Assembly (NCBI GenBank): GCA_020051695.1
Contig: JAGVQM010000042.1
Span: forward strand, 62,001-126,000
Length of the DNA stretch: 64,000 bases
Direction of reading: 5' to 3'
Origin: Candidatus Zixiibacteriota bacterium
Lineage (GTDB): Bacteria > Zixibacteria > MSB-5A5 > WJJR01 > JAJRUJ01
The position numbers were made by a program, and so were the translations under genes. The first letter of the stretch is position 1; each line of letters opens with the position of its first letter. Below, piece by piece: positions 20,301 through 57,821 of the stretch. The notes under the pieces were generated by a model. It ran no database searches, had not been told where the DNA came from, and saw only the letters and a list, made by a program, of their open reading frames with translations.

Positions 20301-20618
20301 ATGGCGATCTTCGAACACGGTGCCGTCAAGATCGAAGTCGATGAAGACGGGTTTATGCAGGAACCCGAACAGTGGAATGAAGCAGTTGCCAAGGCGCTGG
20401 CCACGACAGAGGGTGTGGACAATCTGACTGATGAACATTGGAAGCTGGTCCACTATCTGCGTGAGTATTATCTGAAGTTTGGCATTGCCCCCATGATCCG
20501 CAAGCTGTGTAAGGAAACCGGCTTTCCATTGAAGAAAGTGTACGAGCTGTTCCCTTCCGGCCCGGCGAAAGGGGCCTGCAAGGTTGCCGGTCTGGCCAAG
20601 CCGACCGGGTGTGTGTAG
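20301..20618 (+). CDS. dsrC: DsrC, sulfur-carrier substrate of DsrAB
   Basis: Small carrier protein, 105 residues. Its C-terminal arm accepts sulfite-derived sulfur as a trisulfide from DsrAB and is then reduced by DsrMK. Both redox cysteines are present: residue 93 in AKGACKVAG and the penultimate residue 104 in PTGCV, 11 positions apart as required. The body (DEHWKLVHYLREYYLKFGIA, CKETGFPLKKVYELFPSGP) is standard. A GAGAGGTTGTGAA box lies before the ATG. It is separated from the next gene by 150 bases with two hairpins, so it may be transcribed at a different level from dsrMKJOP. Confidence 0.97.
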   Translation: MAIFEHGAVKIEVDEDGFMQEPEQWNEAVAKALATTEGVDNLTDEHWKLVHYLREYYLKFGIAPMIRKLCKETGFPLKKVYELFPSGPAKGACKVAGLAKPTGCV

Positions 20619-22336: not shown

Positions 22337-22339
22337 ACT

Positions 22340-25153: not shown

Positions 25154-25160
25154 GGCGCCG

Positions 25161-40095: not shown

Positions 40096-40167
40096 GGCGC
40101 TATCGTCTAGGGGTTAGGACGGGTGGTTCTCAGCCATCAAACCGGGGTTCGATTCCCCGTAGCGCTA
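40096..40167 (+). tRNA. tRNA-Glu, anticodon CTC
   Basis: 72-base cloverleaf. Acceptor stem GGCGCTA (40096-40102) pairs with TAGCGCT (40160-40166), with a G-U pair at position 1-72. The D arm has the glutamate-type TCGTCTAGGGGTTAGGAC. The anticodon stem is GGTGG/CCATC around loop TTCTCAG, with CTC at 40129-40131. The T arm is CGGGG, TTCGATT, CCCCG. The discriminator base is A and CCA is not encoded. It reads GAG codons. Confidence 0.95.
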
Positions 40168-40218
40168 TATTTGTGAGCAGCGGATGCAGGGTTTGGGGCG
40201 CGTTGAAAAACCAGGTAG

Positions 40219-40266
40219 GTCGGTTTCCGGAGTCACCCGCCGCGGCGGGGGACGGAGAAAGCCGAC
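40219..40266. repeat. Structured element between tRNA-Glu and the HNH cassette
   Basis: Outer inverted repeat GTCGGTTTC (40219-40227) with GAAAGCCGAC (40257-40266, one bulge) encloses a perfect 14-base palindrome CCCGCCGCGGCGGG (40236-40249). It looks like an extragenic palindromic element. No gene is seen in 40168-40372. Confidence 0.45.
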
Positions 40267-40352
40267 GATTTCTTCATGCGAACGTTGCGGGAGGGGGCTT
40301 ATACCGCGATGCCGCGGTCCAAAGGTATTATGAAGAAACTATATAACCATTG

Positions 40353-41448
40353 TTATGCGCGAGAAATAGGAAATGAAGGGACAAGTATTTACAGTTGCCA
40401 AATTGCACTACATAAACGGCGTAGTTTATGAAGTTGCAAAGAGGGATACCACCGATATCCAAACTTTGGCAGATTTGTCTCAACACACGACAAAAAGAGG
40501 CAAGGCCAAGCATCCGATGGTCCGTGTGAGAACCTTAGCTCGTCTCGCGGAGGGTGTTGGTCTCGTAGAGATATTCAATAAACACAAAATGAAAATTACG
40601 AATCTTGGCAGACAGTACGCAGAAAAAAGATCCACAAACCAATGGGAAATATCGAAAGAACAGCAAAAAATTCTTGGTCATTACATAATTGCAGATAGCT
40701 ACCGGTCAGAAACAATTTATTCAATAGCAACGCTTTTTGAGCTTTGCAAGAAAGGTTATGCCGGAGATGAACTATCCCACAAATTCGCAGAGGAAATTGG
40801 CAAATTAGATGCTTGGAAATCAGAGGCAACGTTTCGCGGTTTTACAAAATTCGGGCTGAGTTACATATCAGAATTAGGTTTGCTTGAAATCGATGAAAAA
40901 GACCTTCTGATAGAAGACATTTCGAAAGACCAAAGATATCAAAACGATATAAATAGTGTTGAACCAATCTCCCTTCCTGCAGGGGAAATTCCTCGCTCTA
41001 AACCCAAAAAATATGGTGGCACAGAGAAATATTCAACCAATCCCCGTCGTGCCAGATGTTCGCTCGAAAAAGCACATTTTCAATGTGAGCTAAACCCCTC
41101 ACACAAAACATTCGTCAATAAAAAATCTGGCAAACAATATATGGAAGCGCATCATTTGGTTCCAATGGGCAAGCAAGGTCTATTTGAGTTTGACATTGAT
41201 GTACCTGAAAATATTCTATGTATTTGCCCAAACTGTCATCGAAAAATGCATCTTGCCGAAGATGAAGATAGGGAAAAAACATTAGCGCAGGCATTTAAGC
41301 TTAGAGAGACAGTTTTACCTGCAAGGGGCATCAAAATAGACATGAAAACCCTTCTGGAAATATATTCAATAGATTGAGTATCGCATAACAAGGCGCTGCA
41401 CACGGATGGCAATTCCGCTGCGCTCCATCGCCACCGGTGAAGGCCACG
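40353..41448 (+). mobile_element. Integron-type gene cassette carrying an HNH endonuclease
   Basis: The unit begins with the core G|TTATGC (GTTATGC at 40352-40358), just upstream of a single gene, and ends at the core G|TTATCC of an attC-like site (41383-41454). One gene with a short leader plus a 3' attC is the standard cassette layout. Its base composition is far more AT-rich than the flanks, so it is foreign. No integrase gene, attI or second attC was found in the window; it would be a lone cassette inserted at a secondary GTT site near tRNA-Glu. Confidence 0.7.
40373..41377 (+). CDS. HNH endonuclease, probably restriction-type
   Basis: 334 residues. The C-terminus has an HNH/zinc module: CELNPSH, YMEAHHLVPMG with the catalytic HH pair, then ENILCICPNCHRKMHLAED with the N, the C-x2-C and the last H. 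The N-terminal 200 residues look like a DNA-binding or specificity region (helical, with RTLARLAEGVGLVEIF and KHKMKITNLGRQYAE) and resemble type II HNH restriction enzymes. No methyltransferase partner is adjacent. Codon use is AT-rich, unlike neighbours. The gene sits alone within an integron-type cassette; it ends 5 bases before the attC. Confidence 0.8.
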   Translation: MKGQVFTVAKLHYINGVVYEVAKRDTTDIQTLADLSQHTTKRGKAKHPMVRVRTLARLAEGVGLVEIFNKHKMKITNLGRQYAEKRSTNQWEISKEQQKILGHYIIADSYRSETIYSIATLFELCKKGYAGDELSHKFAEEIGKLDAWKSEATFRGFTKFGLSYISELGLLEIDEKDLLIEDISKDQRYQNDINSVEPISLPAGEIPRSKPKKYGGTEKYSTNPRRARCSLEKAHFQCELNPSHKTFVNKKSGKQYMEAHHLVPMGKQGLFEFDIDVPENILCICPNCHRKMHLAEDEDREKTLAQAFKLRETVLPARGIKIDMKTLLEIYSID

Positions 41449-41586: not shown

Positions 41587-42321
41587 TCATTGGTTATCAC
41601 CACCTGCTTGCCCTGCGGTTGTATCATGCGACTGGCGCGGACCTGTCTGGGACGCCTGGTCGGACCATCTCAGGCGCAACCCGGCGAGCTTGACCGCCCC
41701 CCGGTGGTAGCCGTCGGGAAACAACCGCTCCAGGTCTTCCAGTTCCAGATGATTTGCCTCACACGCTTCATAGACCGTCGGCACTGCTGCATGTTGCTGG
41801 AAACTGTCGCGGATAAAATAAATTATCTGCCAGTGTCGGTCGGTCAGCGGCTGCGGCATTTTCATCTCATGGGCTTTGAACAAGGTGAATTGTTCATCCC
41901 AGTCCTCGGACCGCACAAGAAACCCCCGCCGGTCAATCTCATAGGTCCGTTCCCGCAGCGGTGTGGGGGGATAGTCGGCCGGAAGGGGAAGCCGGGCGCC
42001 CTCGGGGCAGTTTCCGAGGTAATTCACTCCCGCAAGTTTGCACGCCCCTCGCCAGTAACCGGCGGGGAAAAGTGTTCTTAATTCCGGCAAACGCAGACCA
42101 TTCGTCCGGCAAATTTGATACACCGGGGGGATGAAGCCGGTTTTAGCGAATGCCGTGCGGATGGAATAGATGACGTTCCAATGCTCCCCGGTCAACTCCG
42201 GAGACATCCGCAGCATTGCCGCCATTCCCACGGCAAAGTCCTCATCCCATTGACCGGGATCGAGCAGGAATCCCAACGGATCAACATTGTAGGCTTTGCC
42301 GCCAAAATTAAAGCTCGCCAT
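41587..42321 (-). CDS. Tandem DsrC/TusE-domain protein
   Basis: 244 residues from ATG 42321 (AAAGGAG 5 bases upstream). It holds two DsrC-like domains. Domain 1 (about 1-107): GGKAYNVDPLGFLLDPGQWD, TGEHWNVIYSIRTAFAKTGF, FPAGYWRGACKLAGVNYLGN then C105. Its cysteines 94 and 105 are 11 apart, exactly as in true DsrC (93 and 104), although domain 1 continues instead of ending there. Domain 2 (about 124-220): RTYEIDRRGFLVRSEDWDEQ, DRHWQIIYFIRDSFQQHAAV, FPDGYHRGAVKLAG, with valine 210 in place of the first cysteine and no second cysteine. It is the last gene of the hydrogenase operon, 58 bases after hypE. A role carrying sulfur for the hydrogenase or for DsrMK is inference. Confidence 0.88.
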   Translation of the reverse strand: MASFNFGGKAYNVDPLGFLLDPGQWDEDFAVGMAAMLRMSPELTGEHWNVIYSIRTAFAKTGFIPPVYQICRTNGLRLPELRTLFPAGYWRGACKLAGVNYLGNCPEGARLPLPADYPPTPLRERTYEIDRRGFLVRSEDWDEQFTLFKAHEMKMPQPLTDRHWQIIYFIRDSFQQHAAVPTVYEACEANHLELEDLERLFPDGYHRGAVKLAGLRLRWSDQASQTGPRQSHDTTAGQAGGDNQ

Positions 42322-42379: not shown

Positions 42380-43429
42380 TCAACAAATGCGCGGCAGTTG
42401 TTCGCCGCTGAGCATATCCACGACCCGCTCAGTACCCATGAGGGTCTTGACGGTGACCAGGGGCGATCCCGCGTCCGACACCGCTCCGATGACATGCGGT
42501 TCGGCATCGACGGCACGGAGTGTCGCCAGTGCAGTATCGAGATCATCCGGCGGCAGGAACGCCGTGAAACGGCCTTCGTTGGCCACATAGAGCGGGTCGA
42601 ATCCCAGAATTTCACATGCGGCACGCACGCCATTACTGACCGGGATTTCCCGCTCGTTGATGCAGAGTTCCCGGCCGGAGGCCTGGGCCAGTTCGACCAA
42701 CGCAGTGGCCAGTCCACCCCGCGTCAAGTCACGCAAACAGTGGATGTTGACTCCTGCCTCGATTAAGGCCATGACCGGGGCGGCCAGCGGGGCCAGATCG
42801 CTGGTGATGGGTGGTTCAAAGGACAAGCCCTCGCGCGAGGCCATGACCGCGATGCCGTGCCGGCCGATGTCGCCGTTGACGATGATGACGTCCCCTGGAG
42901 CAATTCGTGCCGGGTTGATTTCGAGACCGTGATCAATTCGTCCAATACCCGCGGTATTGATGAAGACGCCATGTCCCTTGCCGAACTCGACGACTTTCGT
43001 ATCACCCGTGACGATCCTGGCCCCGGCCCGGTCGGCTGCGGCCCGCATTGACCGGACGATCCGCTGCAACTGCTCGATGGCAAATCCCTCCTCGATAATG
43101 AAGCCGACGCTCAGGTATAACGGGCGCGCGCCGCACATCGCCAGATCGTTGACCGTGCCCCACACGGCCAGTGAGCCGATGTCGCCGCCGGGAAAGAACA
43201 AGGGGTCCACGACAAACGAGTCGGTGGTAAATGCCAGTTTCGCTCCGCCGGCAGTGCAAATCGCTGCATCATGTTTCGCATCGTATTCAGGATCGACTAA
43301 TATGGTGATGAAAAGGTCATCGATTAACTGGTGCATGAGTCTGCCGCCGCCGCCGTGCGCCAGCATAATTTTTTGCTGCCCGGGGCTATGTTGCGAGGAT
43401 CCGGGTCCGTTCGAACCGGCAAAAATCAT
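42380..43429 (-). CDS. hypE: Hydrogenase maturation protein HypE
   Basis: 349 residues. Dehydrates the carbamoyl group on its own C-terminal cysteine to the cyanide ligand of the NiFe centre. It ends in PRIC, the required C-terminal cysteine. ATP-binding motifs of the AIR-synthase fold are clear: [63 protein letters not shown] and [16 protein letters not shown]. It overlaps hypD by four bases. Confidence 0.97.
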
Positions 43430-44550
43430 TTGGTTATGTCCTTTATCGAGCCACCAGGTTCAATTTTTTGTTGTCGATAACGGAAGTACGCGGCGCAGGC
43501 GCCCTCGCCTGAGACCATGGTTGCGCCCAAGGGATGTTCGGGTGTGCATTCGGCGCCGAATACCGCACACTCATGCGGTTTGTTTCTGCCCTGCAAAATT
43601 AAGCCGCTGATGCAGCGGAGTTCCGGCTGACTGTGAGACCGGCCAAGGGTAAAGCGATGCAGGGCATCAAAATCACCGAATGACGGGCGCAGGGCCAGGC
43701 CGCTTTGGTTGATGCTGCCGATGCCTCGCCAGTTTCGATCGACCGTCTGGAAAACATCACGGATAAGTTTCTGCGCCGGCAGGTTTCCCTCCGCAGTGAC
43801 CGCCCGTGAGTACTGGTTTTCAACCGTGGCGGCGCCCCGTTCCAATTGCGCGACAGTCATGTGGATACCCTGAAGGATATCCAGCGGTTCAAAGCCGGTG
43901 ACGACGATAGGTACCCCGTACTTGTCGGCGATCGGTTGATATTCACGGTACCCCATCACCGTGCAGACGTGCCCGGCGGCCAGGAAACCGTCGATGGTGT
44001 TGGCCGGGTCGTCCAACAGGGTCGTAATCGCCGGCGGCACCAGTGCCAGAACCGACAGCAGGGAAAAATTTTTCAAATTCAACATTTGTGCCTGCTGCAC
44101 TGCCATCGCGATCGCCGGGGCCGTTGTTTCAAAACCAATTCCAAAGAGCACTACCTCATGCCTTGGATTCTGTTGGGCGATGGCGACTGACTCAAGTGGT
44201 GAGTAGACAACTCGCACGTCCGCGCCCGCCGCACGGGCAACCAGCAACGTCGACGATGTCCCCGGCACACGGACCATATCACCGAACGAGCAGAAGATGA
44301 CGTTCGGGAGCAGCGCCAGTTCGATGGCCTGATCGATGTGTTCGGCGGCAGTGATGCACACGGGGCAACCGGGGCCATGCAGCAGCCGGAGCTGTTTCGG
44401 GAGCAGGCGGTCGATCCCGTATTTGATGATGGCATGTGTCTGGCCCCCGCAAATTTCCATGATCGACCACGAGCGGCGGGTGATGCGCCTGATCTCCCGT
44501 ACGTATTGTTCGGCGGCACGGGGCACGCGGTATTCGTCGATATATTTCAC
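43426..44550 (-). CDS. hypD: Hydrogenase maturation protein HypD
   Basis: 374 residues. Iron-sulfur scaffold on which the Fe(CN)2CO unit is built together with HypC. Signature motifs: [66 protein letters not shown] and [20 protein letters not shown]. All conserved cysteines are visible. It overlaps hypC and hypE by four bases each. Confidence 0.97.
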
Positions 44551-44798
44551 CGGTGATCATCCTCGGTTGCGGATTGCGATATCTCCGCAAGGTACTGCAT
44601 AACCCGCGCGGCTTCCTCTTTGTTGATCGTGCCGATGGCGATACCCGCGTGGACGAGCACGTAATCCTCCACGGCGGCTTCGGGAGCAAAGGCCAGGTTG
44701 ACGGTCATAAATATCCCGCTGAAATCGACTGTACCGGTGCGGGTCAGCGGATCGCCGGCGTTGATACTTGTCAATTTTCCGGGCACGGCCAGGCACAT
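44547..44798 (-). CDS. hypC: Hydrogenase maturation chaperone HypC
   Basis: 83 residues from ATG 44798. That start gives MCLAVPGK, with the essential Cys2; two extra residues from 44804 would block it, so the internal ATG is right. The OB-fold pattern [20 protein letters not shown] and [19 protein letters not shown] is standard. GAGGAAAATTGATC precedes the start. HypC carries the iron unit to the large subunit with HypD. Confidence 0.95.
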
Positions 44799-44800
44799 GA

Positions 44801-47137
44801 TCAATTTTCCTCGTTCATGGTAATGGTTGTCCGATAGATTTGTCCAAGGGCGATCCCCCCGTCGTTGGGCGGGACACGTTGAGGACAGAACGGGTTAAGA
44901 CCAGCAAGCCGCAACGCATGCATTGATTGCCGGGTCAACACCTTGTTCTGAAAACACCCGCCCGATAACACCACTTGTGTGATCTTACTCCGGCGGGCCA
45001 CGGCGAGGAGCATCGCGACTAGCGTCCGATGGAATTGTGCGGCGATTTGTTCCGTGCCGACCGCATGCCGCACATCGTTCAGCATGCTGATGACCATTGG
45101 CTGCCAGTCAAGGACCAGCGGCGAGTTATCCTCGGATAACTGAAAAGGGTATGCATCGGTTGTGTCGTCGGTCTCGGCCGCGAATTGGACTTTCATGGCG
45201 GCCTGTCCCTCAAAACGCGACCGGCGGCAGATTCCGGTGATGGCCGCGACGGCGTCAAACAGTCGTCCCACGCTGGAAGTCCGGGGTGTATTCAGCTTTT
45301 GCTTTAACATTCTCCGCAGGATTTCCAGCTCTTCATGGCGAAATGACTGCAGCGGTATCAGATCTTTTTGTGAAAAAACTTCATCGCCGAAAATTTCATA
45401 CAAGACACCCAGCGCACTGCGGCAGGGGTCCACAATGGCCTGCTCGCTACCCGGTAGGGGAAACGACCTCATGTGCGCAAAGCGTGTTGTGCCGGTCCCG
45501 TCGACTTTGAAAAACTCCCCGCCCCAAATGGTGCCGTCATCGCCGAGTCCGGTGCCGTCCCAGGCAATACCGAGTACCGGAGGGGCCAGACCATGCTCGG
45601 CCATGCAGGAGAATACGTGCGCTATATGGTGTTGGACCTGTAGCAGGGGCCGCCGCTGATTGCCGGCGACAACTGTGGAATGGTAATCGGGATGCAGGTC
45701 GCTGATGACCTGCTGCGGATCAATATGATAAATCGATGGCAGTGCGCCCAGTTCCCGGGCAAAAACCTCCCGGGCCTTGCTGGTGGACAGATCACCGATA
45801 TGCTGGCTGACAAATACGTTCCGGCCGGCGGATACGGCAACTGCATTTTTTACATGCGCGCCGAGCGCCAGGGCCGTCGGCCCCGGTCGAGGGAGCCGGA
45901 TACTCATGGGGGCATAGCCCCGGGCATTGCGCAACACCATTTCCTCGCCGTCGACAAACTGGACCACGGAATCGTCCATCTGCCTCGCAATCGGCCGATT
46001 ATGCACCAGAAAGACGTCGGCGATTCCGCGGAGACGGACCAGGGCCTCTTGTTCATCAATGCAAATCGGTTCGTCGGCCACATTCCCGCTTGTCGCGACA
46101 ACCGGTGAGCCGAGTTCGGCCATCAGCAGGTGATGCAGCGGTGTATAGGGCAGCATCACTCCCCAGTACGGGTTGCCCGGCGCGACAGCCGGGGAAATGG
46201 CCGTTGGTATCCGGTGTGCAGCGGCTGTACACCGCGCCAGCAGGATGGGGGCGGCCGGAGAGGTGAGCAGGTCCTGTTCCTCAGGCGCCAGGTCGCAATG
46301 CAGGCGGAGGTGGTGCAGGTCGGGGAACATCAGGGCGAACGGTTTTTCCTGACGAGCTTTCAGTCGCCGCAGCCGCCGGACCGCGCCGTCGTTTTGCGCA
46401 TCCACCACAAGTTGAAACCCGCCCAGACCTTTCAACGCGAGGATACCGCCCCGCAGTACCAGCCGGCAGGCCTGGACCAGTGCTTCGTCGTGACGAGCCA
46501 GCACCCGGCCTGCGTCGTCCCACAATTCAAGGTGCGGCCCGCAGCGGGGGCAGGCGTTCGGCTGGGCATGAAAACGGCGGTCTCCGGGGTCCTCGTACTC
46601 GGCCCGGCATTCGGGGCACATGGGAAAGATGTTCATCGTGGTATTGGCTCGGTCGTAGGGCAGGGCGTTAATGATGCTGAACCGCGGACCGCAGTCGGTG
46701 CAATTGGTGAACGGATAGCGATAGCGCCGGTTTGCCGTGTCGAGGATCTCATCACGGCAGGTACCGCAGGTTGCCATGTCCGGGGTTATCAGTGCGCTGC
46801 GCGTGTCTGAGCCGTTGCCGCTTGTTCGAACCTGGAAGCCGCTATCACCTTTCGGTGATTGTTCTTCCAGTGACACGTTGTCGATCCGCGCCAGCGGAGG
46901 GGGATTCGTTTTGCACTTGTTGAGAAATTGTTCCAGCACGGCACGCCGCCCCTCGAGCTCAATGTCCACCCCGGCGGGAGAATTGCCGACCCAGCCCGCA
47001 AGACCAAGGGAGGAAGCCAGACGGTAAACATACGGTCGGAAGCCCACCCCCTGGACGCGGCCGCGTACCGCAATACCAATACGTACGATGGAATCACGGC
47101 TGCCCGGCACCGACAATTTGTCGCGATGATTTTTCAT
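44801..47137 (-). CDS. hypF: Carbamoyltransferase HypF
   Basis: 778 residues. Makes the carbamoyl precursor of the cyanide ligands from carbamoyl phosphate and ATP and loads it on HypE. Domains in order: acylphosphatase (RGRVQGVGFRPYVYRLA), two zinc fingers (CGTCRDEILDTANRRYRYPF then CTDCG, and CPECRAEYEDP then CPRCGP), YrdC-like (CRLVLRGGILALKGLGGFQL) and Kae1-like (VQHHIAHVFSCMAEHG, LSGGCFQNKVL). Length and motifs are complete. It overlaps hypA by one base. Confidence 0.97.
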   Translation of the reverse strand: MKNHRDKLSVPGSRDSIVRIGIAVRGRVQGVGFRPYVYRLASSLGLAGWVGNSPAGVDIELEGRRAVLEQFLNKCKTNPPPLARIDNVSLEEQSPKGDSGFQVRTSGNGSDTRSALITPDMATCGTCRDEILDTANRRYRYPFTNCTDCGPRFSIINALPYDRANTTMNIFPMCPECRAEYEDPGDRRFHAQPNACPRCGPHLELWDDAGRVLARHDEALVQACRLVLRGGILALKGLGGFQLVVDAQNDGAVRRLRRLKARQEKPFALMFPDLHHLRLHCDLAPEEQDLLTSPAAPILLARCTAAAHRIPTAISPAVAPGNPYWGVMLPYTPLHHLLMAELGSPVVATSGNVADEPICIDEQEALVRLRGIADVFLVHNRPIARQMDDSVVQFVDGEEMVLRNARGYAPMSIRLPRPGPTALALGAHVKNAVAVSAGRNVFVSQHIGDLSTSKAREVFARELGALPSIYHIDPQQVISDLHPDYHSTVVAGNQRRPLLQVQHHIAHVFSCMAEHGLAPPVLGIAWDGTGLGDDGTIWGGEFFKVDGTGTTRFAHMRSFPLPGSEQAIVDPCRSALGVLYEIFGDEVFSQKDLIPLQSFRHEELEILRRMLKQKLNTPRTSSVGRLFDAVAAITGICRRSRFEGQAAMKVQFAAETDDTTDAYPFQLSEDNSPLVLDWQPMVISMLNDVRHAVGTEQIAAQFHRTLVAMLLAVARRSKITQVVLSGGCFQNKVLTRQSMHALRLAGLNPFCPQRVPPNDGGIALGQIYRTTITMNEEN

Positions 47138-47403
47138 TATTGGTCCGGGATTTCAATGCCGGTCAGGATGATATCCAGCGCCCGGGGGTCGGCCGGATCG
47201 GTGAGCATTTCGATATCCAATTGAGCTCCTGCGGCCGGCGTACCGACAGCGGCGTGCGTGAAATGTTCGCGGAAATGATCGGCCGAGATATTCGTCAATG
47301 CGCCCAGTTGAATCTTTACGCGGGCGATGGTCTGCGCGTTGTGCTCGGCCGCAAGAGTGTTGATTTTGCGGAACAAGCCTTTCAACAGGGATGATTCATG
47401 CAT
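47137..47403 (-). CDS. hypA: HypA-like nickel chaperone lacking the zinc finger
   Basis: 88 residues from ATG 47403, against about 113 for normal HypA. The nickel-binding N-terminus MHESSLLKGLFRKINTLAAE keeps the conserved MHE, and VKIQLGALTNISADHFREHF matches the family. The two CxxC pairs of the zinc loop are missing: after QLDIEMLTDPADPRALDIIL the protein goes straight to TGIEIPDQ. There is no frameshift that would restore the loop. hypB is also absent from the operon. It overlaps the preceding protease gene by 8 bases. Confidence 0.8.
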   Translation of the reverse strand: MHESSLLKGLFRKINTLAAEHNAQTIARVKIQLGALTNISADHFREHFTHAAVGTPAAGAQLDIEMLTDPADPRALDIILTGIEIPDQ

Positions 47404-47902
47404 CAGTGTGTCTTCTCCCAGGGTCGGGCGCCGGATGGCCGCACAGTTCAGCGACGATATCCTGCGCCACGGTGACCGCCGCCTGTTGCACTGCCGGAGA
47501 TAAACCCTCACCAAATGAAAAATCTTCGCCTTCGATGCCGTATACCAGCAGCCGTCGGGGAAGGCGGCCCAGTACCGTGGCCAGTTGGACGGCCGTGACG
47601 ATATTTATCGAATGAGTTGAATAGCCGGCGAACAACTCGACCGGGATTTTTTCTGCCAGCGCGTCAAAGCGCACCGTCCGACCGGCTTTGGTTTGTGAGA
47701 CCATGCAATCTACAATAACGCTCTCAGTGGACTGGTCCCAACGGTCCAGCAAAACTGCCGGATCAGTGAGCCCTTCCAGAGCCGATACCGTGTCGGGCGC
47801 CAGTTCCCGCACCAGCCGGGCGACGTATAATCCGACGCCGTCGTCTTTGCGGTAGCGGTTACCGATACCGATCACGAGTTTAGTCTGCAGGGGCGTCACC
47901 AT
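47396..47902 (-). CDS. [NiFe]-hydrogenase maturation endopeptidase (HyaD/HycI/HoxW-type)
   Basis: 168 residues. Cleaves the C-terminal extension of the large subunit after nickel insertion. Motifs: VIGIGNRYRKDDGVGLYVAR with the metal-binding acidic residue, VIVDCMVSQTKAG, and GYSTHSINIVTAVQLATVLG with the histidine. The start is ATG 47902 or GTG 47899; GGAGG stands only 2 or 5 bases upstream. It lies 8 bases after the large-subunit gene, its likely substrate. Confidence 0.9.
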   Translation of the reverse strand: MVTPLQTKLVIGIGNRYRKDDGVGLYVARLVRELAPDTVSALEGLTDPAVLLDRWDQSTESVIVDCMVSQTKAGRTVRFDALAEKIPVELFAGYSTHSINIVTAVQLATVLGRLPRRLLVYGIEGEDFSFGEGLSPAVQQAAVTVAQDIVAELCGHPAPDPGRRHTDA

Positions 47903-47910
47903 ATCCTCCG

Positions 47911-49200
47911 TCACTCTCGCTGCAGATCGAGTTTCAGAAAATGGCAGGAGCATGAGATACATGGATCATAATTCCGCACGGCCTGCTCACACTGCCAGGT
48001 AAGCTGATCATCGGACAAATGCAGGTTGCGTTCGACAAAATCAGCGAGATCGGACTCGATCACCTTCTGGTTTTGCGCGGTCGGCGGGACAATGCGGGCA
48101 TCACGGATAAGACCGGCGCTGTCGATGCTATAGCGGTGCAGCAACAACCCGCGGGGAGCTTCGGTGCACCAGCTCGCGGTACCCGCCCGGGGCAGGACCT
48201 CGAGGTATGGTGCCTCCGGTTGTTCGTATTGCCCGATGATCCTCAAGGCCTCCACGCAGGCAAACAGGACTTCGACCGCCCGAACGATGATGCTCTGGAA
48301 GGGGTTCCTGCAAACCGGGCCCAGCCCCGCTTCCCGGGCGGCCTGCTGCGCTATTTCGGGCAGTTTATCAAAATTCAGGTTGTACCGGGCCAGCGGGCCG
48401 ACATGATATTCCCCGCGGGCTTTGGTCCGGGCATGCAACGATGTCGAATGTTCGACATGCTCTTCGGCGAAGTGTTCAAAAAACTCATCGGCGCCGATCT
48501 CCAGTCCCTTGTTGGAGACAACAAGGCCCTCGTTCAGAGGGTATTCATCCGGGTGACGAAGTGCGACGAATTCGTAATCGCGTTCGAGTTCCGGGAACGG
48601 CAGCGTGGCCACCCAGCGGATTGTCTCCTGCGCAGCAGCGACCGCCCAGCGCAGGTCATCGGCAAGGCCGTCCAGTTCCGTCATCGTCGGGGCTTTGTAG
48701 AACCCGCCTACACGGGGGTTGATCGGGTGAATCTCCCGCCCGCCGACCAGGGTGACGATGCTATTGCCGATTTTTTTCAACCGCAAACCGCGCTGAACGG
48801 CATCGGGACACTTTTTTGCCAGTTGAATGGCGTCGTCATAGCCCAGGAAATCCGGGGCGTGCAACAGATAAATATGGAGCGCATGCGATTCGATCCACTC
48901 GCCGCAGTACAACAACCTGCGGAGGTTGCGCAGTTGACCGGTGACCGCCACACCACATGCGGCTTCCATGGCATGTGCCGCGCTCATCTGGTAGGCGACC
49001 GGACAGATACCGCAAATGCGGGCGGTGATATCGGGTGCCTCGGTAAACATCCGGCCGCGGAGGAAAGCCTCGAAGAATCGGGGCGGTTCAAAAATATTCA
49101 AGACGGCCTGGGTCACTTTGCCGCCGCGGACTTTGACCTGCAGTCCGCCTTCCCCCTCGACGCGGGCCAGGTAATCGACGGTAATTGTTTTATTTTTCAT
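47911..49200 (-). CDS. hydA: Group 3b-type [NiFe] hydrogenase large subunit
   Basis: Catalytic alpha subunit of a cytoplasmic NAD(P)-linked hydrogenase (sulfhydrogenase), about 429 residues from ATG 49200. The NiFe-binding L1 motif is [20 protein letters not shown] and the L2 motif is DPCISCSCH near the C-terminus, followed by [21 protein letters not shown] is typical of group 3 enzymes. The short extension after the final histidine is what the adjacent endopeptidase would remove. It overlaps the small subunit gene by 11 bases. Confidence 0.93.
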
Positions 49201-49969
49201 AGGCCTCACTGACCTTTCGGAAAGGTTCGGCAAACGCGTTGAATCCCCGCAATGCCCGGACGATGTCGTCGTGCCGGAGGTTCAGCTGTTCCAACACCGC
49301 GGCGAAGCCGGCCACATTCGGGCTGTCCTGTGGTCCGAAACACCCGTAGCAGCCGCGGTTGTACGACGGACACAGCGCATTACAACCGGCTTGAGTGACC
49401 GGCCCGAGACACGGCGTCCCCTGCGCAACGAGGACACAGACGGTCCCGCGCCGTTTGCATTCCAGGCAGACGCTGTACGGCGGAATGTTCGGTTTGCGCC
49501 CGTTCAATAGTGCGCCGACCACTTCCAGCAATTGATATTTATTGATCGGGCAACCGCGCAGTTCGAAATCAACCGGGATATGGTCCGAGATTGGCGTCGA
49601 TTTTGCCAGCGCAGTAATATATTGCGGCGAGGGATAGACGATGGAGATAAAATCATCGACGTCGGCGAAATTGCGCAGCGCCTGAATGCCCCCGGCGGTG
49701 GCGCACGCGCCGATGGTGATCAGCAGTTTGGATGCCCGCCGGACTCGGTGGATGCGCTCGGCATCATGGGGGGTGGTAATGGACCCCTCGACAAGGGAGA
49801 TGTCGTACGGTCCACCGACCACCCGCCGGGAGGCCTCCGGGAAATTGGCGATTTCCACCACACCGGTCACGGCCAGCAATTCATCCTCGCAGTCAAGCAG
49901 ACTCAGCTGGCAGCCGTCACAGGAGGCGAATTTCCATACCGCCAATTTTGGTTTACGCTTGCCGGCCAT
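49190..49969 (-). CDS. hydD: Group 3b-type [NiFe] hydrogenase small subunit
   Basis: 259-residue iron-sulfur subunit. The proximal cluster ligands are in [20 protein letters not shown] and IGACATAGG, and [20 protein letters not shown] gives another. The medial and distal cluster cysteines follow in [20 protein letters not shown] and [14 protein letters not shown]. No Tat signal, so it is cytoplasmic, in agreement with group 3. It passes electrons to the gamma and beta subunits. Confidence 0.94.
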
Positions 49970-49970
49970 G

Positions 49971-50837
49971 TTACATCTCCCGTTTTATGAATACATCTTT
50001 CATGTCCGTAAGGCGGTACACCGGGCCGTCCTTGCACACAAAACTGGGACCGACCTGGCAGTGTCCGCACAACCCGACGCCGCATTTCATGTTTCGTTCC
50101 ATGGAGATGAAGATGCTGTTGTCGGCTACCTGTCGTTCCCGCAATCCCATCACGGTGAAACGCATCATGATCTCCGGGCCGCAGACCAGCGCCGCACAAC
50201 TCGACGGATCAAACCGCAGGCCCCCGATGAACGTGGTGACCACACCGACATTGCCCTGCCAATCGCCGGTGGCGCGGTCGACGGTGACCAGGACCTCAAT
50301 ATCGAAACGCGAACGCCATTTTTCGAGGTCTTTGCGGTGTACGATATCGGCCGGCGTACGCGCCCCATAGACCAGGATAATTTTGCCGTACTCTCCACGG
50401 TGGGCCAGCAGGTAGTGGACCGCCGGGCGCAGCGGCGCCAGGCCGATGCCGCCGGCGATAATGACCACATCGCGGCCGGTGATATCGGTGACCGGCCAGC
50501 CGGCGCCGTAGGGTCCGCGGATCCCCAGCCGGCTTCCGGGCTTGAGCCCGGCGATCGCCCGCGAGACCGCCCCGACCGCTCTGACTGTGTGCGTTAATGT
50601 TTCAGGTTTTGCCGGGTCGCCGCTGATGGAAATCGGGATTTCCCCGATGCCAAATGTGTACAGCATGTTGAATTGTCCGGGCTTAAAGATAAAACCACCA
50701 TCTTCGGCTGGTGGCGTCAGCTCCAGCGTAAACGTATCGGCTGTTTCCCGGCTTTTTTTCCGCACCAGATACGGCCGGGACAGCCAGGGGTTGCCGCCGG
50801 CCGCCGCCGGACGAGCGTCAGTGTGTGTTGTTTCCAT
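49971..50837 (-). CDS. hydG: Hydrogenase gamma subunit, FAD/NAD(P) reductase
   Basis: 288 residues from ATG 50837. Ferredoxin-NADP reductase fold: FAD-binding [23 protein letters not shown](P)-binding [19 protein letters not shown] and [17 protein letters not shown]-terminal [2Fe-2S] site of the DHODB type is [20 protein letters not shown] followed by VCKDGPV. It exchanges electrons with NAD(P)H. It is followed by the small subunit gene after one base. Confidence 0.92.
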
Positions 50838-51282
50838 AAATATCCAATAGTTGCAGTCTGGTCGCCTCAAGACGCTGCGCGATCAACGACGATACGCGCT
50901 GCATCAGGATATAGCCGAGATCATGGTCTTTTTCGCACTTGCCGCGCAGACATTTCCCGTCCAGGGCCAGGGCCTTGGTCAACTCGACGGCCCGGGCGTC
51001 AAAATGCCATTTGTAGGGTGGGACCATCCACGACCACCCGGTGACCTCTCCGGCTCCTCGCGTTTGAATGGCGATGGGGCCTTTTTGCGGCGCATAGGTT
51101 TCGATAATTACCTTGCCCTCCCGGATCAGATAGAACAAATCGGCGTCATCCCCCTCATGAAAGAGAAACTCCCCGGCCTTAAAGACAACATTGGATGCGC
51201 AACCGACCAGCAGGTCGAGATGTTTCTTGTTCAGTCCGGCGGTGAAGGGATGATCCTTCAGGAATCGACTGAGGTCTTCCAT
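50818..51282 (-). CDS. Cyclic-nucleotide-binding-domain protein of the hydrogenase operon
   Basis: 154 residues with one cNMP-binding (Crp/Fnr effector) beta-roll: [35 protein letters not shown], then [20 protein letters not shown]. It lacks the helix-turn-helix of Crp/Fnr regulators; the C-terminus is a single helix ([20 protein letters not shown]). It sits between the beta and gamma subunit genes and overlaps the latter by 20 bases, so it is likely a regulatory or accessory subunit of the hydrogenase rather than a transcription factor. The ligand is unknown. Confidence 0.85.
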
Positions 51283-51287: not shown

Positions 51288-52445
51288 CTACCTTCCGTTA
51301 GTACGTCGTATAACGAATTTCTTTTCCTGCAGTTTGCGTGTTTCCTCAGTAAGGTCAATCCCGGCGGGGCACCAGGTGATGCAGCGCCCGCACCCCACGC
51401 AACCGCACATCCCGAATTGGTCGAACCAGTACGCCAGTTTGTGCGTCAACCACTGGCGATACCGGGACAGCGTGGAACTCCTGATGCTGCCCCCATGAAT
51501 GTAGGAGAATTCAGCGGTAAAACACGAGTCCCACTTCAGGCGGCGTTCCGCGTGCTCTCCGGTCAGGGTTGTCGTATCTTCCACGGTGGAACAAAAACAT
51601 GTCGGGCATACCATGGTACAATTGCCGCACGCCAGACAACGGTCGGCAATCTGTCCCCAGTGAGGATCGCTGAATTTCTGATCGAGCGTCTCCCGGAGTT
51701 CTTCGGTATTCAGCGAGCGTCGTATTTTTTTTGCTGCGGCCGAGGTGACTTTTTCGGCCGCTTCGATGTCGGTTCGGGCTGCCTTTCGCACCGGCAACCG
51801 GGCACACAACTCCGCCCCGGCTGCAGAACCGGTTTCGATAATGAAATGATGGTTTCCCGAGGTCAGGACTTCGGTCAGCGCAAGGTCGAACCCGCCGGTG
51901 GCGCGCGGGCCGGTCTGCAGCGAGGTGCAAAAACATGTCTCGCTGGGATGAGAACAGTTGACTGCGATGATCAAAATATCCTGCCGCCGCCGCCGGTAGG
52001 CCTCATTGATAAACGGGCCGTCGGTGAAGATTTTATCGTGGATCGCCAGGGCATGCAGTTCGCAGGAACGCACGCCGAGGAACGCACGCCGCGGGTGTTC
52101 CCGATCCGGTTCATTGATGGAAAAGCGGTCGTCGATCCGCTGTGCCGCGCACAACATATCCGAGGGGGGATGCAGGAATTTTTTCCAGGAGTGTGGTCCG
52201 ACGGCGTACGCAAAAAACGTTTTGCGCTTGGTCTTCACCAGGCGGTAACTGCCGGCTTGCTGCCGGTCGTTCCAGCCGAGGGGAAGGTCGGTGTCCCTGT
52301 GCAGGGCGTCGTAGGTAATCGCTCCATCCCTGAGCACGGGACCGAAGATGGAATGCCCCCGTTCCATCACCGCATCCAGCAGCGTTTGGAAATCACCGGT
52401 TTCAAGGACATAAATCGCCTTTTCAGGCGACGTATCAACAGGCAT
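51288..52445 (-). CDS. hydB: Hydrogenase beta subunit, iron-sulfur (AsrA-like)
   Basis: 385 residues from ATG 52445 (GGGGGTGG box upstream). Related to sulfhydrogenase HydB and anaerobic sulfite reductase AsrA. The N-terminal domain has FLGVRSCELHALAIHDKIFT and CSHPSETCFCTS. The C-terminal ferredoxin region has CLACGNCTMVCPTCFCST and CVGCGRCITWCPAGIDL. It connects the hydrogenase module to the flavin subunit and is the site of the sulfur-reductase activity reported for archaeal sulfhydrogenases. It is the first gene of the operon. Confidence 0.92.
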   Translation of the reverse strand: MPVDTSPEKAIYVLETGDFQTLLDAVMERGHSIFGPVLRDGAITYDALHRDTDLPLGWNDRQQAGSYRLVKTKRKTFFAYAVGPHSWKKFLHPPSDMLCAAQRIDDRFSINEPDREHPRRAFLGVRSCELHALAIHDKIFTDGPFINEAYRRRRQDILIIAVNCSHPSETCFCTSLQTGPRATGGFDLALTEVLTSGNHHFIIETGSAAGAELCARLPVRKAARTDIEAAEKVTSAAAKKIRRSLNTEELRETLDQKFSDPHWGQIADRCLACGNCTMVCPTCFCSTVEDTTTLTGEHAERRLKWDSCFTAEFSYIHGGSIRSSTLSRYRQWLTHKLAYWFDQFGMCGCVGCGRCITWCPAGIDLTEETRKLQEKKFVIRRTNGR

Positions 52446-52545
52446 GGCACCACCCCCAGACGCCCGCTCTCGGGGCCTAGACAAACGGTTTACCCATAGC
52501 GGTCGGGGTCGGTCATTCCGGCCGCAGTTTGGCATTGTTTCCGGA

Positions 52546-53850: not shown

Positions 53851-54735
53851 TCATTGGGGAACTCCCATGCTATGGGCCACTTCTATAATGATATCGCGGC
53901 CGCGCAGTATCCCGACCAGTTCTTCGGCCCTGACGACGGGCAGGTTGATCAGATGGTGCCGGACCATGAGGTGAATGGCCTCCATCAGTGGCGCGTTAAC
54001 ATCCACGACGACCGGATCGCCGACCAGTTCGGTGATGCTTCTGTTGCCCAGGACTTTGCATTGGGCCAAGAACATCCCCGTGAAGTACGTGGTGTACGGG
54101 GATTCGCCGAGGAACGGCGGCAACAGCAGCGTGAGCAGATCGTTGAAACGAATGATTCCCAGAAACTTGCTGTTTTGCCCGTACACGAGGGCCGATCGGA
54201 GTTCACCCGAGCGCCGGTCGTTCTCGGCGGATTCGCTGAATGCGCGTTGCAGGACTTCCAGCGCCGTGACCACCGGGCGGTCGACCATGATATGGGGATA
54301 AATCGACGGTGAGACCATGAGTTCGGCGATGGTGCGTTCTTTCAACGGCCGCCGCGCCGGTCCCTGTTCGAGGAGGTCGCGGATGCGTTTTCCGAGGACA
54401 TCGACATCAAACGGTTTTTGCAGGAATTCGACGATTTCCAGCTTAATCCCGGCGACGGCAGTTTCGAAATCACCATGTCCGGTCAGAATGATCACCGGGA
54501 GTGCGGGATCAATTTCGCGGATCCTGCGCAGGGTCTCGATGCCATTCAAGCCGGGCATTTTAAGGTCCAACAGGACGATATCGGGCCGCGCCGCCTGAAC
54601 GGCCGCCAGGGCCGCTGCGCCGTCGGCCGCCTCAGTAATGGTGAATCCCCGCCGGGAAAGCGCAGCCGTCGTCGCCCGACGGAAATCGTCTTCATCATCG
54701 ACTAGCAGCAATTTGATATCGGCATTTTTTTCCAT
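53851..54735 (-). CDS. Response regulator with receiver and CBS-pair output (REC-CBS)
   Basis: About 294 residues from ATG 54735 (GGAG 6 bases upstream). The receiver domain (LLLVDDEDDF, phospho-acceptor in IVLLDLKMPG, ILTGHGD, lysine in LQKPFD) is complete. Two CBS motifs follow (TIAELMVSPSIYPHIMVDRP and SITELVGDPVVVDVNAPLME then LINLPVVRAEELVGIL), a nucleotide-sensing module. There is no DNA-binding domain. It likely integrates phosphorylation and adenine-nucleotide level and acts on a partner protein. Confidence 0.88.
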   Translation of the reverse strand: MEKNADIKLLLVDDEDDFRRATTAALSRRGFTITEAADGAAALAAVQAARPDIVLLDLKMPGLNGIETLRRIREIDPALPVIILTGHGDFETAVAGIKLEIVEFLQKPFDVDVLGKRIRDLLEQGPARRPLKERTIAELMVSPSIYPHIMVDRPVVTALEVLQRAFSESAENDRRSGELRSALVYGQNSKFLGIIRFNDLLTLLLPPFLGESPYTTYFTGMFLAQCKVLGNRSITELVGDPVVVDVNAPLMEAIHLMVRHHLINLPVVRAEELVGILRGRDIIIEVAHSMGVPQ

Positions 54736-55269
54736 ACCTGTCTCCATGGCATTTACGCCGGCGGCAAACCGGCAAAACCCAACAACGGCCAATACCGCGT
54801 GCTGAGCAAGAGTATTAAGGCAAACACCCTGATAAAGGAAATCTCGCTGACCCGCAAAGAAAATTTGGCAGCCGGATCGCCGCCAGTTGCCGGCGCTTGA
54901 ACCAGGTTCCAGCCGCTCAAACGATCAATGTTTGATTTCAACGCTCCCCGTGCCGGGAATGAATCGTGAATGGGTGGTTTTAATCGGCAATTGCACGTCA
55001 GCCGCGACACCAGCATCATGGGTAACACAAACGGCCTGCCGCAAAGTACCCACTGCTCAGAACCGATCGCCAAACCAAAATGGTCCTCCAAATGGCCTAT
55101 CCTGATCATCTTATGGGCGCCACCGGAAGGTGCGCCAAATCGTCGGCAAACAACGTCTTCGTCATATGCCGCAGATTTATGTGGTGCTTTACTTGCCATC
55201 GCTGTAGCAGCCGTCCCACCGGGAGACAGCTCTCACCTCAGTTCAGTCGATCATCTCCGCGTTTATCAT
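54736..55269. other. Long gap between the two response-regulator genes
   Basis: 534 bases. Several overlapping open frames of 120-150 codons exist on both strands, but none has a recognisable domain, a good ribosome binding site or a typical codon pattern. It may be decayed coding sequence or hold a promoter for the REC-CBS, porin and hydrogenase genes. I see no repeat or RNA gene in it. Confidence 0.5.
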
Positions 55270-56127
55270 TTAATCGGGGAATCGCCTCCGAATTTCCCTA
55301 ATGAGTTTGTGCTGCCGTTCGAGGATGGCCCGCTGCCGCTCCTCATATAATTTGCGAATGGTGCGTACCAGGTCATCGATTTCGGGCGGTTTCTTCAGGT
55401 ATTCATTTGCCCCCAGATCGATGACCTCCAGCGCAGTCTCCACCGAAGGGTGTCCGGTAAGGATGATCACTTCAATATGGGGGAAACCGGTTTTTATCCG
55501 TCGGAGCACTTCCATGCCGTCCATGCCGGGCATCTTCAGGTCCAGCACGACGACATCGACCGCGCGCCGGGTCAACAAGTCCAGCGCGTCCCGGCCGCTT
55601 TCGGCAGTGGTGACGTCCATGTTGCGCCGTTGCAGCACTTTTTTCATCGAATCAAGAAAATGGATTTCGTCGTCAACCAGCATGACGTTGACTGTCTCGG
55701 CCGGAAACGCGTCGCGGCCAGGCCGAGGTTCTTTTGCTTTGCGGGACGTCGCGCGCACCACGACCCGGCGGATGCGGTCGGCCAACTCGTCGATTTCGAT
55801 GGGCTTAAACAGATAATCGGCCACGCCGTCTTTCGAAGTCTGAAAGGCATCGGTCAGGGAGCCGTAACCGGTCAACAGCATCACGGGGATGTCCGGATGT
55901 TTCTGCCGAATTTCTTGGAACACTTCAATGCCGTCGATGTCCGGCATCCTGACATCCAGCACTACGGCGTCATAGTTCCCGCGTTCCATTTTTTCCAGGG
56001 CTGTGACGCCGTTGGGTGCAATGTCGACATCGAAACCCCTCCGGCCCAGGGCCTGCGAGGATGAAACCAGGAACTCTTCCTCGTCATCCACCATCAGGAG
56101 TTTGATATTTTCTGTCTTCTTGTTCAT
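55270..56127 (-). CDS. Double-receiver response regulator (REC-REC)
   Basis: About 285 residues from ATG 56127 (ATG 56136 possible). Two complete receiver domains: LLMVDDEEEF, VVLDVRMPDI, LLTGYGS, LFKPIE; then VMLVDDEIHF, VVLDLKMPGM, ILTGHPS, LKKPPE. A C-terminal helix (YEERQRAILERQHKLIREIR) follows. No output domain, so it is likely a phosphorelay intermediate for the kinase directly upstream (17-base gap). Both aspartates and lysines are intact. Confidence 0.9.
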   Translation of the reverse strand: MNKKTENIKLLMVDDEEEFLVSSSQALGRRGFDVDIAPNGVTALEKMERGNYDAVVLDVRMPDIDGIEVFQEIRQKHPDIPVMLLTGYGSLTDAFQTSKDGVADYLFKPIEIDELADRIRRVVVRATSRKAKEPRPGRDAFPAETVNVMLVDDEIHFLDSMKKVLQRRNMDVTTAESGRDALDLLTRRAVDVVVLDLKMPGMDGMEVLRRIKTGFPHIEVIILTGHPSVETALEVIDLGANEYLKKPPEIDDLVRTIRKLYEERQRAILERQHKLIREIRRRFPD

Positions 56128-56144
56128 GATCACCATCACCTTGT

Positions 56145-57821
56145 TTACTCGTTTTTGACAGTCCGCGGGGGTAGTACAATGTGCATGGTCGTCCCCTGGT
56201 CCGGCTTGCTTTCCGCCCGGATGCGTCCGCCCCACGAATGAATGATGCCGTAACACACGGACAGTCCCAATCCGGTCCCCTTGCCGGCCGGTTTGGTGGT
56301 GTAAAACGGTTCAAAGATGCGTTCCAACTCCTCAGGTGGGATGCCGATCCCATCGTCGATGATCTCCACATGCACTCCGTCGTCCCTGCAGGAGGCCCGG
56401 ACCACGATCGTGCCTCCCTGCGGCAGCGCATCAATGGCGTTGTTGATCAGGTTGACCAGGACTTGTTCCAATTCGATCGGATCGGCTAGGACCTGCGGCA
56501 AATTGCCATCAAGGTCCGCAACGAGACGGACGTTACGGGCGGCGGCATGACGTTCCAGAAGATTGATGATTTCGGCAAACCTTGGGGCGATGTCGATCAG
56601 GGCCAGGTTGGGTTCAATTTTCCTGCCGAATTGCAGCATTTTCTGGGTAATGCCGGCGCAGCGGCGGATTTGTTCTTTGCAGCGAGCCACCGATTCAGTT
56701 GTCTGCGTTTGCTTAGTTGCCTCACCATCCGTCTGCTGCAGCAGGTCGGAAATATTCGTCAGTTCGGCGCTGATAATGGCCAGGGGGTTGTTGATTTCGT
56801 GGGCTAGACCGGTGGCCAGTTCCCCAATGGAGGCCAGCTTGGCCGAGCGGATAAACGCCCGCGACATTTCATCGCGTTCGGCGTTGGCCTTGTCGATGCG
56901 GCTGGTCAGATGCCAGGTGGCAATGAATGTAGTCACGACCAGCAACAATACCGCTACCGCCACGACCTGGGCGCCGAGGGCGATGGCGCGGTCGACGGGG
57001 GCCTGGATCGTGGAGAGATCCTGTTCGACGCCCAGCATCCACCGGCCGTCGTTAATCCACATGGTGGCCCTGATTTTTTCGATCCCGTCGATTGTCACCC
57101 GTTGTTCCTGCACACCCTGGTGGGGATCCGGCAACGGCAGCGTTGCCTGGTCCAATGGCGCTCTCCCCGGCGGGGAGGTCTGATACAAGCCGCTGCGGTT
57201 GATGATGTATGTGTAGCTCCCATGTCCCAGGACCTCGGAGCGCACCAGATCATTAAACCGTTCGCTGTTGATTGTTGCGCGCAGGATCCACGGGCCCTGA
57301 TCGGACTGGTTTTTGACCGCAATAATACAATGGGGCGTCTGCCGGAAGCCAAGGAAGACATCACTGATGTATGCTCCGGAAACCATGACTTCTTTGAACC
57401 AGTCGGCCTCACGATAATTCCTGCCGCGGAGGTCGTAAGGCCCGACATAACCGACATGCTGACCGTCCGCGTCAATGATCCCCACATCGATAAATCCGCT
57501 GGGGCTGGACTGATTCAGATTGCCGAGCAGCCGGTGCAATTCTGTTGTGGAACTGATTTCCGGATAAGCCCGGGAGCCGGCGGCCAGCCGCAGCAGGTTC
57601 AATTGTGCGGACAGATGCGATTCAATGGCCCGCGCATGGTCCTGGACCACGTTGACCATCAATTCCCGCGATTTTTGTTCGAGCATGCCCCGGAACACAA
57701 TCCAGGAGCCGAATCCGGCAAGCGTGAGAGGGAGAATTGCCGCAACCAGCAGGGCGATGACCATTCGCCAGCGCAGCGCCTTGTTCACTCCACCAGGTCC
57801 GGCGAATCCCAATCGCGTCAT
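56145..57821 (-). CDS. Membrane sensor histidine kinase
   Basis: 558 residues. Transmembrane helix 1 at about 20-45 and helix 2 at about 285-305 enclose a 240-residue periplasmic dCache-like sensor (IDVGIIDADGQHVGYVGPYD, SGAYISDVFLGFRQTPHCII). His341 in TGLAHEINNPLAII is the phospho-acceptor of HisKA. ATPase boxes are VLVNLINNAIDALPQGG, IIDDGIGIPPEELERIFEPF and GTGLGLSVCYGI. It is divergent from the sigma-54 activator gene across a 200-base AT-rich region. The signal is unknown; the neighbourhood suggests regulation of the hydrogenase or porin. Confidence 0.92.
   Translation of the reverse strand: MTRLGFAGPGGVNKALRWRMVIALLVAAILPLTLAGFGSWIVFRGMLEQKSRELMVNVVQDHARAIESHLSAQLNLLRLAAGSRAYPEISSTTELHRLLGNLNQSSPSGFIDVGIIDADGQHVGYVGPYDLRGRNYREADWFKEVMVSGAYISDVFLGFRQTPHCIIAVKNQSDQGPWILRATINSERFNDLVRSEVLGHGSYTYIINRSGLYQTSPPGRAPLDQATLPLPDPHQGVQEQRVTIDGIEKIRATMWINDGRWMLGVEQDLSTIQAPVDRAIALGAQVVAVAVLLLVVTTFIATWHLTSRIDKANAERDEMSRAFIRSAKLASIGELATGLAHEINNPLAIISAELTNISDLLQQTDGEATKQTQTTESVARCKEQIRRCAGITQKMLQFGRKIEPNLALIDIAPRFAEIINLLERHAAARNVRLVADLDGNLPQVLADPIELEQVLVNLINNAIDALPQGGTIVVRASCRDDGVHVEIIDDGIGIPPEELERIFEPFYTTKPAGKGTGLGLSVCYGIIHSWGGRIRAESKPDQGTTMHIVLPPRTVKNE

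What the first reader, a model, noticed from the sequence alone, without database searches (positions are those of the whole stretch)
41587..42321. Tandem DsrC fusion, one domain active-looking and one cysteine-free, inside a hydrogenase operon
Two DsrC/TusE domains are joined in one 244-residue protein. Domain 1 keeps both redox cysteines (94 and 105) at the exact 11-residue spacing of DsrC, but the second cysteine is not at the C-terminus and is followed by a linker. Domain 2 has lost both. The gene is the last of a tightly packed [NiFe] hydrogenase and maturation operon. Known DsrC carries sulfur from DsrAB to DsrMK; here an internal thiol pair with a tethered pseudo-DsrC could form a dedicated sulfur carrier for the sulfhydrogenase, or a docking adaptor that brings the hydrogenase to DsrMK. 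The fold and cysteines are seen; the function is inference.
Basis: partly seen in the sequence, partly recalled or inferred. Interest (0 to 1): 0.86.

Follow-up and report, generated by a model that had tools for sequence, protein, structure and literature searches.

The report
Two-headed DsrC beside a hydrogenase
Next to a hydrogen-handling enzyme, this uncultured bacterium carries a real double copy of the sulfur-carrier protein DsrC; it belongs to a widespread family that has lost DsrC's normal working cysteine and is found almost only in bacteria with the sulfite-reduction pathway, which points to a hidden link between hydrogen and sulfur metabolism.

Summary
On the minus strand, 42321-41587 encodes a 244-aa protein with two DsrC folds. 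It is the last gene of a [NiFe] group 3b hydrogenase/hyp operon in a Zixiibacteriota genome that also has a normal DsrC (20301-20618) and dsrAB/dsrMKJOP. It is not an artefact: 115 two-domain proteins from several phyla descend from one internal duplication. The key interpretation fails. The "exact DsrC cysteine pair" is not a family trait: Cys94 is invariant (115/115) but Cys105 is Cys in only 5/115 (2/108 in this clade) and lies in a disordered linker. The second half is not cysteine-free: Cys187 is present in 112/115. The family thus reverses the usual DsrC rule: it keeps the DsrAB-linked CysB and lacks the normally universal penultimate CysA. About 87% of carrier genomes have DsrA. Hydrogenase linkage is recurrent (groups 3b, 3c, 4, [FeFe], hyp genes; 24/105 loci against 1/39 control windows) but not universal. 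A sister clade sits in an operon with a CysA-only DsrC and its own DsrMK, as if DsrC's two thiols were split over two proteins. Best reading: a CysB-only DsrC paralogue working in trans with CysA-bearing DsrC (mechanism inferred, about 0.35).

The parts
41587..42321 (-). tandem DsrC gene, 244 aa
   Evidence: SD-like AAAGGAG upstream of ATG
42013..42321 (-). DsrC domain 1 (residues 1-103): Cys71, Cys94 (CysB position, invariant in 115/115)
41956..42012 (-). interdomain linker (residues 104-122) containing the non-conserved Cys105 (codon 42009-42007); pLDDT below 50 at 105-118
41668..41955 (-). DsrC domain 2 (residues 123-218): CysB replaced by V210, no CysA, Cys187 nearly invariant (112/115)
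41590..41667 (-). C-terminal extension of 26 residues, the longest tail in the family (29 residues after L215); most relatives end 2-4 residues after the equivalent of L215
42380..43429 (-). hypE, directly upstream in the same operon
43426..44550 (-). hypD
44547..44804 (-). hypC
44801..47137 (-). hypF
47137..47514 (-). hypA (true start probably at MHESSLL)
47396..47962 (-). hydrogenase maturation endopeptidase
47911..49233 (-). [NiFe] hydrogenase large subunit, group 3b-like
49190..49969 (-). [NiFe] hydrogenase small subunit
49971..50870 (-). HydG/AsrB-like FAD-NAD(P) subunit
50818..51282 (-). cyclic-nucleotide-binding-like protein of the hydrogenase operon
51288..52535 (-). HydB/AsrA-like iron-sulfur subunit, first gene of the hydrogenase operon
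20301..20618 (+). canonical single-domain DsrC ending ACKVAGLAKPTGCV, inside the dsr cluster: proposed CysA-bearing partner

Best explanation
This is a member of a widespread family of tandem, CysB-only DsrC paralogues that arose by one internal duplication and is almost confined to bacteria with DsrAB. Shown: two DsrC folds on a flexible linker; invariant Cys94 at the CysB position of half 1; a nearly invariant Cys187 in half 2; no CysA and no free C-terminal arm; co-occurrence with DsrAB; recurrent operon-like linkage to hydrogenases and their maturation genes. Inferred: without CysA it cannot form DsrC's own intramolecular trisulfide. It would act in trans as a single-thiol, two-headed partner: it recognises the surfaces that handle DsrC and forms or exchanges a persulfide or mixed disulfide through Cys94 with a CysA-bearing protein (the canonical DsrC here; a dedicated CysA-only DsrC in the sister clade). 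In this operon it would make the making or running of the group 3b hydrogenase respond to, or feed, the Dsr thiol pool.
For: Cys94 115/115; Cys187 112/115; Cys71 105/115; CysA-position Cys 5/115. [quoted passage not shown] the family keeps exactly the DsrAB-linked one. Domain tree separates all tandem halves from single-domain DsrC (support 100/99), second halves together 98/88. DsrA in 29/34 tandem genomes against 24/99 others in the phylum; genomes with DsrA and 3b hydrogenase have the tandem gene in 23/34, DsrA only 6/19, 3b only 4/31, neither 1/49. About 32/36 carriers from the other records have DsrA. Hydrogenase/hyp linkage 24/105 against 1/39, nearest genes mostly hypB, hypE, hypF or the maturation peptidase, same strand. 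Sister clade operon CysA-only DsrC - DsrM - DsrK - tandem in four loci, and 6/7 against 3/126 genome co-occurrence.
Against: No biochemical or expression evidence. Roughly three quarters of tandem loci have no hydrogenase nearby, so a hydrogenase-specific role is not general. Clade A has no CysA-only partner in its operon. Domain 2 has no CysB in clade A. Co-occurrence counts are not corrected for phylogeny. Position 71 is also Cys in Zixiibacteriota canonical DsrC, so Cys71/Cys187 may be inherited rather than newly selected. A regulator with thiols would show much the same pattern.
Confidence: 0.35

Rival explanations
1. A thiol-responsive regulator: the DsrC fold resembles a helix-turn-helix, and the two-headed protein binds DNA (or a sensor kinase) to adjust hydrogenase and other energy operons to sulfur/redox status, with Cys94/Cys187 as the sensor.
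For: Many paralogues per genome beside different operons (G126, G122, G118). Many solitary copies. Two-component genes near 24/105 loci against 3/39 controls, borderline p 0.05. Weak LexA_DNA_bind match (21.1 bits, cut-off 23.7) and weak Foldseek LexA match over 52 columns. From memory, A. vinosum DsrC was reported to bind dsr promoter DNA (Grimm 2010).
Against: No shared palindrome upstream of 112 tandem genes against 888 control regions. Median pI 6.1 and an acidic putative recognition helix in half 2. LexA resemblance is below threshold.
Confidence: 0.27
2. An accessory factor for hydrogenase maturation, for example protecting or delivering thiols during [NiFe] assembly in sulfide-rich cells.
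For: Nearest hydrogenase-related neighbours are mostly maturation genes: hypE (10 copies), hypB (6), hypF, and the 3b or 3c endopeptidase. hypA-hypB-tandem occurs without structural genes in the stretch held (L027, L032). The trio recurs in L053, L130, L131, L132.
Against: Also beside [FeFe] hydrogenase and APS kinase genes, and many solitary copies. 9 of 36 carrier genomes have no detectable HypD, though several are incomplete MAGs.
Confidence: 0.15
3. One reading: an internal Cys94-Cys105 pair makes domain 1 a self-contained DsrC-type sulfur/electron carrier for the hydrogenase, with domain 2 as a tethered pseudo-DsrC.
For: Spacing of 11 residues in this sequence; Cys at the same column in the second copy of L037 and in 3 of 7 clade B proteins.
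Against: Cys105 is in 2/108 of its own clade, lies in a disordered linker and is not at a free C-terminus.
Confidence: 0.08
4. A decaying or neutral DsrC duplicate with no function.
For: This copy has an odd 26-aa C-terminal extension.
Against: Invariant and nearly invariant columns over many phyla, one ancient origin, retained multi-copy.
Confidence: 0.04

Closest known systems
DsrC (dissimilatory sulfite reductase gamma/DsrC, TIGR03342, PF04358)
   Same: Same fold in each half; CysB motif GACKxAG in half 1; co-occurs with DsrAB and DsrMK
   Different: Two fused halves, no penultimate CysA, no free C-terminal arm, half 2 has V at CysB; not in the dsr operon
TusE (tRNA 2-thiouridine sulfur relay)
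   Same: Same fold
   Different: TusE-type proteins keep CysA and usually lack CysB (PMC3397948); the tandem family is the reverse; below the TusE equivalog cut-off
CysA-lacking single-domain DsrC-like proteins (called RspA in Venceslau et al. 2014, from memory; that paper is not in the library)
   Same: Loss of CysA
   Different: Single domain as far as recalled; relation to the tandem family not tested
HdrDE / DsrMK heterodisulfide reductases
   Same: The sister clade lies beside DsrMK-like genes, DsrK with a CCG domain
   Different: Substrate would be a disulfide between two DsrC-type proteins (inference)

Membership tests
DsrC/TusE/DsvC (TIGR03342, PF04358) | Fold and profile score | tested here: met
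   PF04358 125.8 bits (cut-off 24.9), TIGR03342 94.2 (cut-off 53.5), Foldseek to solved DsrC
DsrC/TusE/DsvC (TIGR03342, PF04358) | Penultimate C-terminal CysA on a free arm | tested here: not met
   Half 1 runs into a linker; half 2 has no CysA; most relatives end 2-4 residues after the GL motif. PMC3397948 calls this Cys strictly conserved
DsrC (DsrAB substrate) | CysB 11 residues before CysA | tested here: inconclusive
   Cys94 invariant; Cys105 at +11 in this protein but in only 5/115 family members
DsrC (DsrAB substrate) | DsrAB and DsrMK in the genome | tested here: met
   dsrAB 14207-16577, dsrMKJOP 21329-26318 in the window; DsrA in 29/34 and about 32/36 carriers
DsrC (DsrAB substrate) | Binds DsrAB and forms a trisulfide | not testable with these tools
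   Needs purified proteins
TusE | TusE equivalog model score | tested here: not met
   50.9 bits, cut-off 191; the canonical window DsrC also misses it (84.9)
Sulfhydrogenase (ShyABCD/HydABDG) | Equivalog scores of the neighbouring hydrogenase | tested here: not met
   Large subunit 258.1 of 700 and 241.3 of 880 bits: a relative, not an equivalog
LexA-type winged-helix regulator | LexA_DNA_bind score | tested here: not met
   21.1 bits, cut-off 23.7
DNA-binding regulator | Shared operator upstream | tested here: inconclusive
   No enriched palindrome in 112 upstream regions, but the test is crude

The most novel reading that the evidence does not exclude
Split DsrC: the two catalytic thiols of DsrC have been divided between two proteins. 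A tandem DsrC supplies CysB (once in clade A, twice in clade B) and another DsrC-type protein supplies CysA. The intermolecular disulfide or trisulfide, a true protein heterodisulfide, is handled by a dedicated DsrMK in clade B and exchanged with the canonical DsrC pool in clade A, giving hydrogenases and other enzymes their own port into sulfite respiration.
Probability: 0.2. Interest if true: 0.88.

Novelty: new variant of a known kind. Interest (0 to 1): 0.62.

Why it matters
How cytoplasmic hydrogenases and bifurcating enzymes exchange electrons with the DsrC pool is an open question in sulfate and sulfite reducers. A DsrC paralogue family, apparently unremarked in the open literature searched here, that repeatedly sits in hydrogenase and maturation operons and is nearly confined to dsr-carrying genomes gives a concrete, mutable candidate. 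It occurs in cultured sulfate reducers, so it can be tested. The reversed cysteine pattern and the sister operon with a CysA-only DsrC and its own DsrMK make a split-thiol mechanism directly testable. It also warns that automatic annotation as 'DsrC family sulfur relay protein' hides a different protein.

Tried and rejected
Assembly artefact: rejected (115 two-domain proteins, several phyla, including single-contig chromosomes). Internal Cys pair as a family mechanism: rejected by conservation. Sulfhydrogenase-specific role: rejected, as linkage covers 3b, 3c, group 4 and [FeFe] and most copies are unlinked. [NiFe]-specific maturation factor as a general role: weakened by [FeFe] context and carriers without HypD. 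Shared upstream operator: none found. Plasmid or viral carriage: no hits. Interdomain geometry and Cys-Cys distances: no coordinates were available and pTM stayed 0.49 with 11 or 94 sequences, so not claimed. Literature searches for tandem DsrC, RspA or hydrogenase-linked DsrC found nothing relevant; subscription papers, including Venceslau 2014, are not held.

Full report
Observation. The reading frame is on the minus strand, window 42321 to 41587, 244 aa; the start ATG follows AAAGGAG. Pfam, NCBIfam and PDB sequence searches all give DsrC, with two matched stretches. A first AlphaFold model matches solved DsrC structures (Foldseek target TM about 0.86-0.89). With 94 family sequences the domain blocks are mostly above 90 pLDDT, and residues 105-118 are below 50; pTM stays 0.49, so the relative placing of the domains is unknown.

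Surroundings. The gene is the last of an operon on the minus strand: hydB-like, cNMP-binding, hydG-like, small and large [NiFe] subunits, endopeptidase, hypA, hypF, hypC, hypD, hypE, tandem DsrC. The hydrogenase is related to, but far below the cut-offs of, the curated sulfhydrogenases. The same window has dsrAB, a dsrN-like gene, a dsrL-like gene, canonical dsrC and dsrMKJOP. The genome's relatives in named collections are Candidatus Zixiibacteriota.

Family. Relatives with the same two-domain build were found in Zixiibacteriota (34 of 133 genomes) and in Abyssobacteria, Desulfobacterota (including cultured Desulfobulbus elongatus, Desulfobulbus alkaliphilus and Desulforhabdus), Acidobacteria, Chloroflexi, Planctomycetota, Calditrichota and Ignavibacterium records. 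Some genomes have about seven copies; two or three can stand in a row. A domain tree puts all tandem halves apart from single-domain DsrC (100/99) and all second halves together (98/88), so one internal duplication preceded the split into clade A (108 proteins, ours) and clade B (7).

Cysteines. In 115 proteins Cys94 is invariant, Cys187 is in 112, Cys71 in 105; Cys64 is in 102/108 of clade A but not in ours. The +11 cysteine (Cys105) is in 5 of 115: ours, the second copy of L037, and three of clade B. Domain 2 has V/I/L at the CysB position in clade A and Cys in clade B. So the observation that prompted the finding, a complete DsrC-like pair, is local to this sequence, and domain 2 is not cysteine-free. 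Stockdreher et al. [quoted passage not shown] the tandem family has the opposite set. Position 71 is also Cys in the ten canonical Zixiibacteriota DsrC examined.

Genome-level links. In 133 Zixiibacteriota genomes, tandem genes go with DsrA (29/34 against 24/99) and with the 3b hydrogenase (27/34 against 38/99). Genomes with both have the tandem gene in 23/34, DsrA only in 6/19, 3b only in 4/31, neither in 1/49. These counts are not corrected for phylogeny, and the 3b and DsrA calls were read from match tables by score. In 36 carriers reached through the other records, 33 had some match; I accept about 32 as DsrA/DsrB, and 27 had HypD.

Physical links. Hydrogenase or hyp genes are within about 10 kb of 24 of 105 deduplicated tandem loci, against 1 of 39 control windows from carrier and related genomes (Fisher p 0.003). 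Many loci are short, so this is a lower bound. Sixteen copies are within about 150 bp, all on the same strand. Types: 3b (for example L028, L030, L053), 3c/Mvh (L024, L025, L131), group 4 with a molybdopterin oxidoreductase (L087, L104), [FeFe] with HydG-like radical SAM (L037), and hypA-hypB-tandem (L027, L032). In L132 one cluster reads 3c hydrogenase - hypA - hypB - tandem - 3b hydrogenase - hypFCDE. Linkage is scattered over the tree (19 changes), so it was gained or lost many times. Other neighbours are APS kinase (five loci), a NifS-SelD fusion, and two-component genes (borderline over control).

Clade B. Four loci share the order CysA-only DsrC (GAYRLAGLPRPxGCL) - DsrM-like - DsrK-like (CCG domain) - tandem B (L026, L035, L116, L117). 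Six of seven clade B genomes have this CysA-only DsrC, against 3 of 126 others.

Mechanism. Shown: architecture, cysteine pattern, single origin, dsr co-occurrence, recurrent hydrogenase linkage. Inferred: action in trans with a CysA-bearing DsrC, and an effect on hydrogenase assembly or activity. A thiol-responsive regulator is the strongest rival; the crude operator search was negative but does not exclude it. The identity as a two-domain DsrC paralogue is near certain; the mechanism is about 0.35.

Novelty. No paper in the library searched describes it, but subscription papers are missing. I rate it a new variant of a known kind.

Noticed in passing
L026:6841-10038; L035:9786-12907; L116:2965-7330; L117:7670-10940: Conserved operon of a CysA-only single-domain DsrC, DsrM-like, DsrK-like and clade B tandem DsrC.
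   Followed up: partly
L056:10001-12875; L120:7854-12233; L122:6927-10638; L080: Tandem DsrC beside a NifS-SelD fusion (cysteine desulfurase/selenocysteine lyase-type plus selenophosphate synthetase-type domains), suggesting a possible selenium or sulfur link.
   Followed up: partly
window 40096-41377: A tRNA gene and an HNH-endonuclease gene lie next to the end of the operon, and the tandem protein here has an unusual 26-aa C-terminal extension; possibly the scar of a mobile element.
   Followed up: no
window 18507-21332: dsrL-like gene directly before dsrC, and an RsbRD_N-domain gene between dsrC and dsrM in the dsr cluster.
   Followed up: no
window 53851-57821: Response regulator with CBS domain, a double-receiver protein and a histidine kinase beside the hydrogenase operon; similar genes stand near other tandem loci.
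   Followed up: partly
window 42380-47514: The hyp operon here has hypA, F, C, D and E but no hypB, which elsewhere often stands directly before the tandem gene.
   Followed up: no
L031:10549-11901 (same contig as L096): Two neighbouring tandem DsrC copies broken by frameshifts or stops; assembly errors or pseudogenes.
   Followed up: no
L093 and L095: Contigs of the same length, position and match in an Anaerolineales and a Syntrophobacterales MAG, so one bin is probably contaminated.
   Followed up: no
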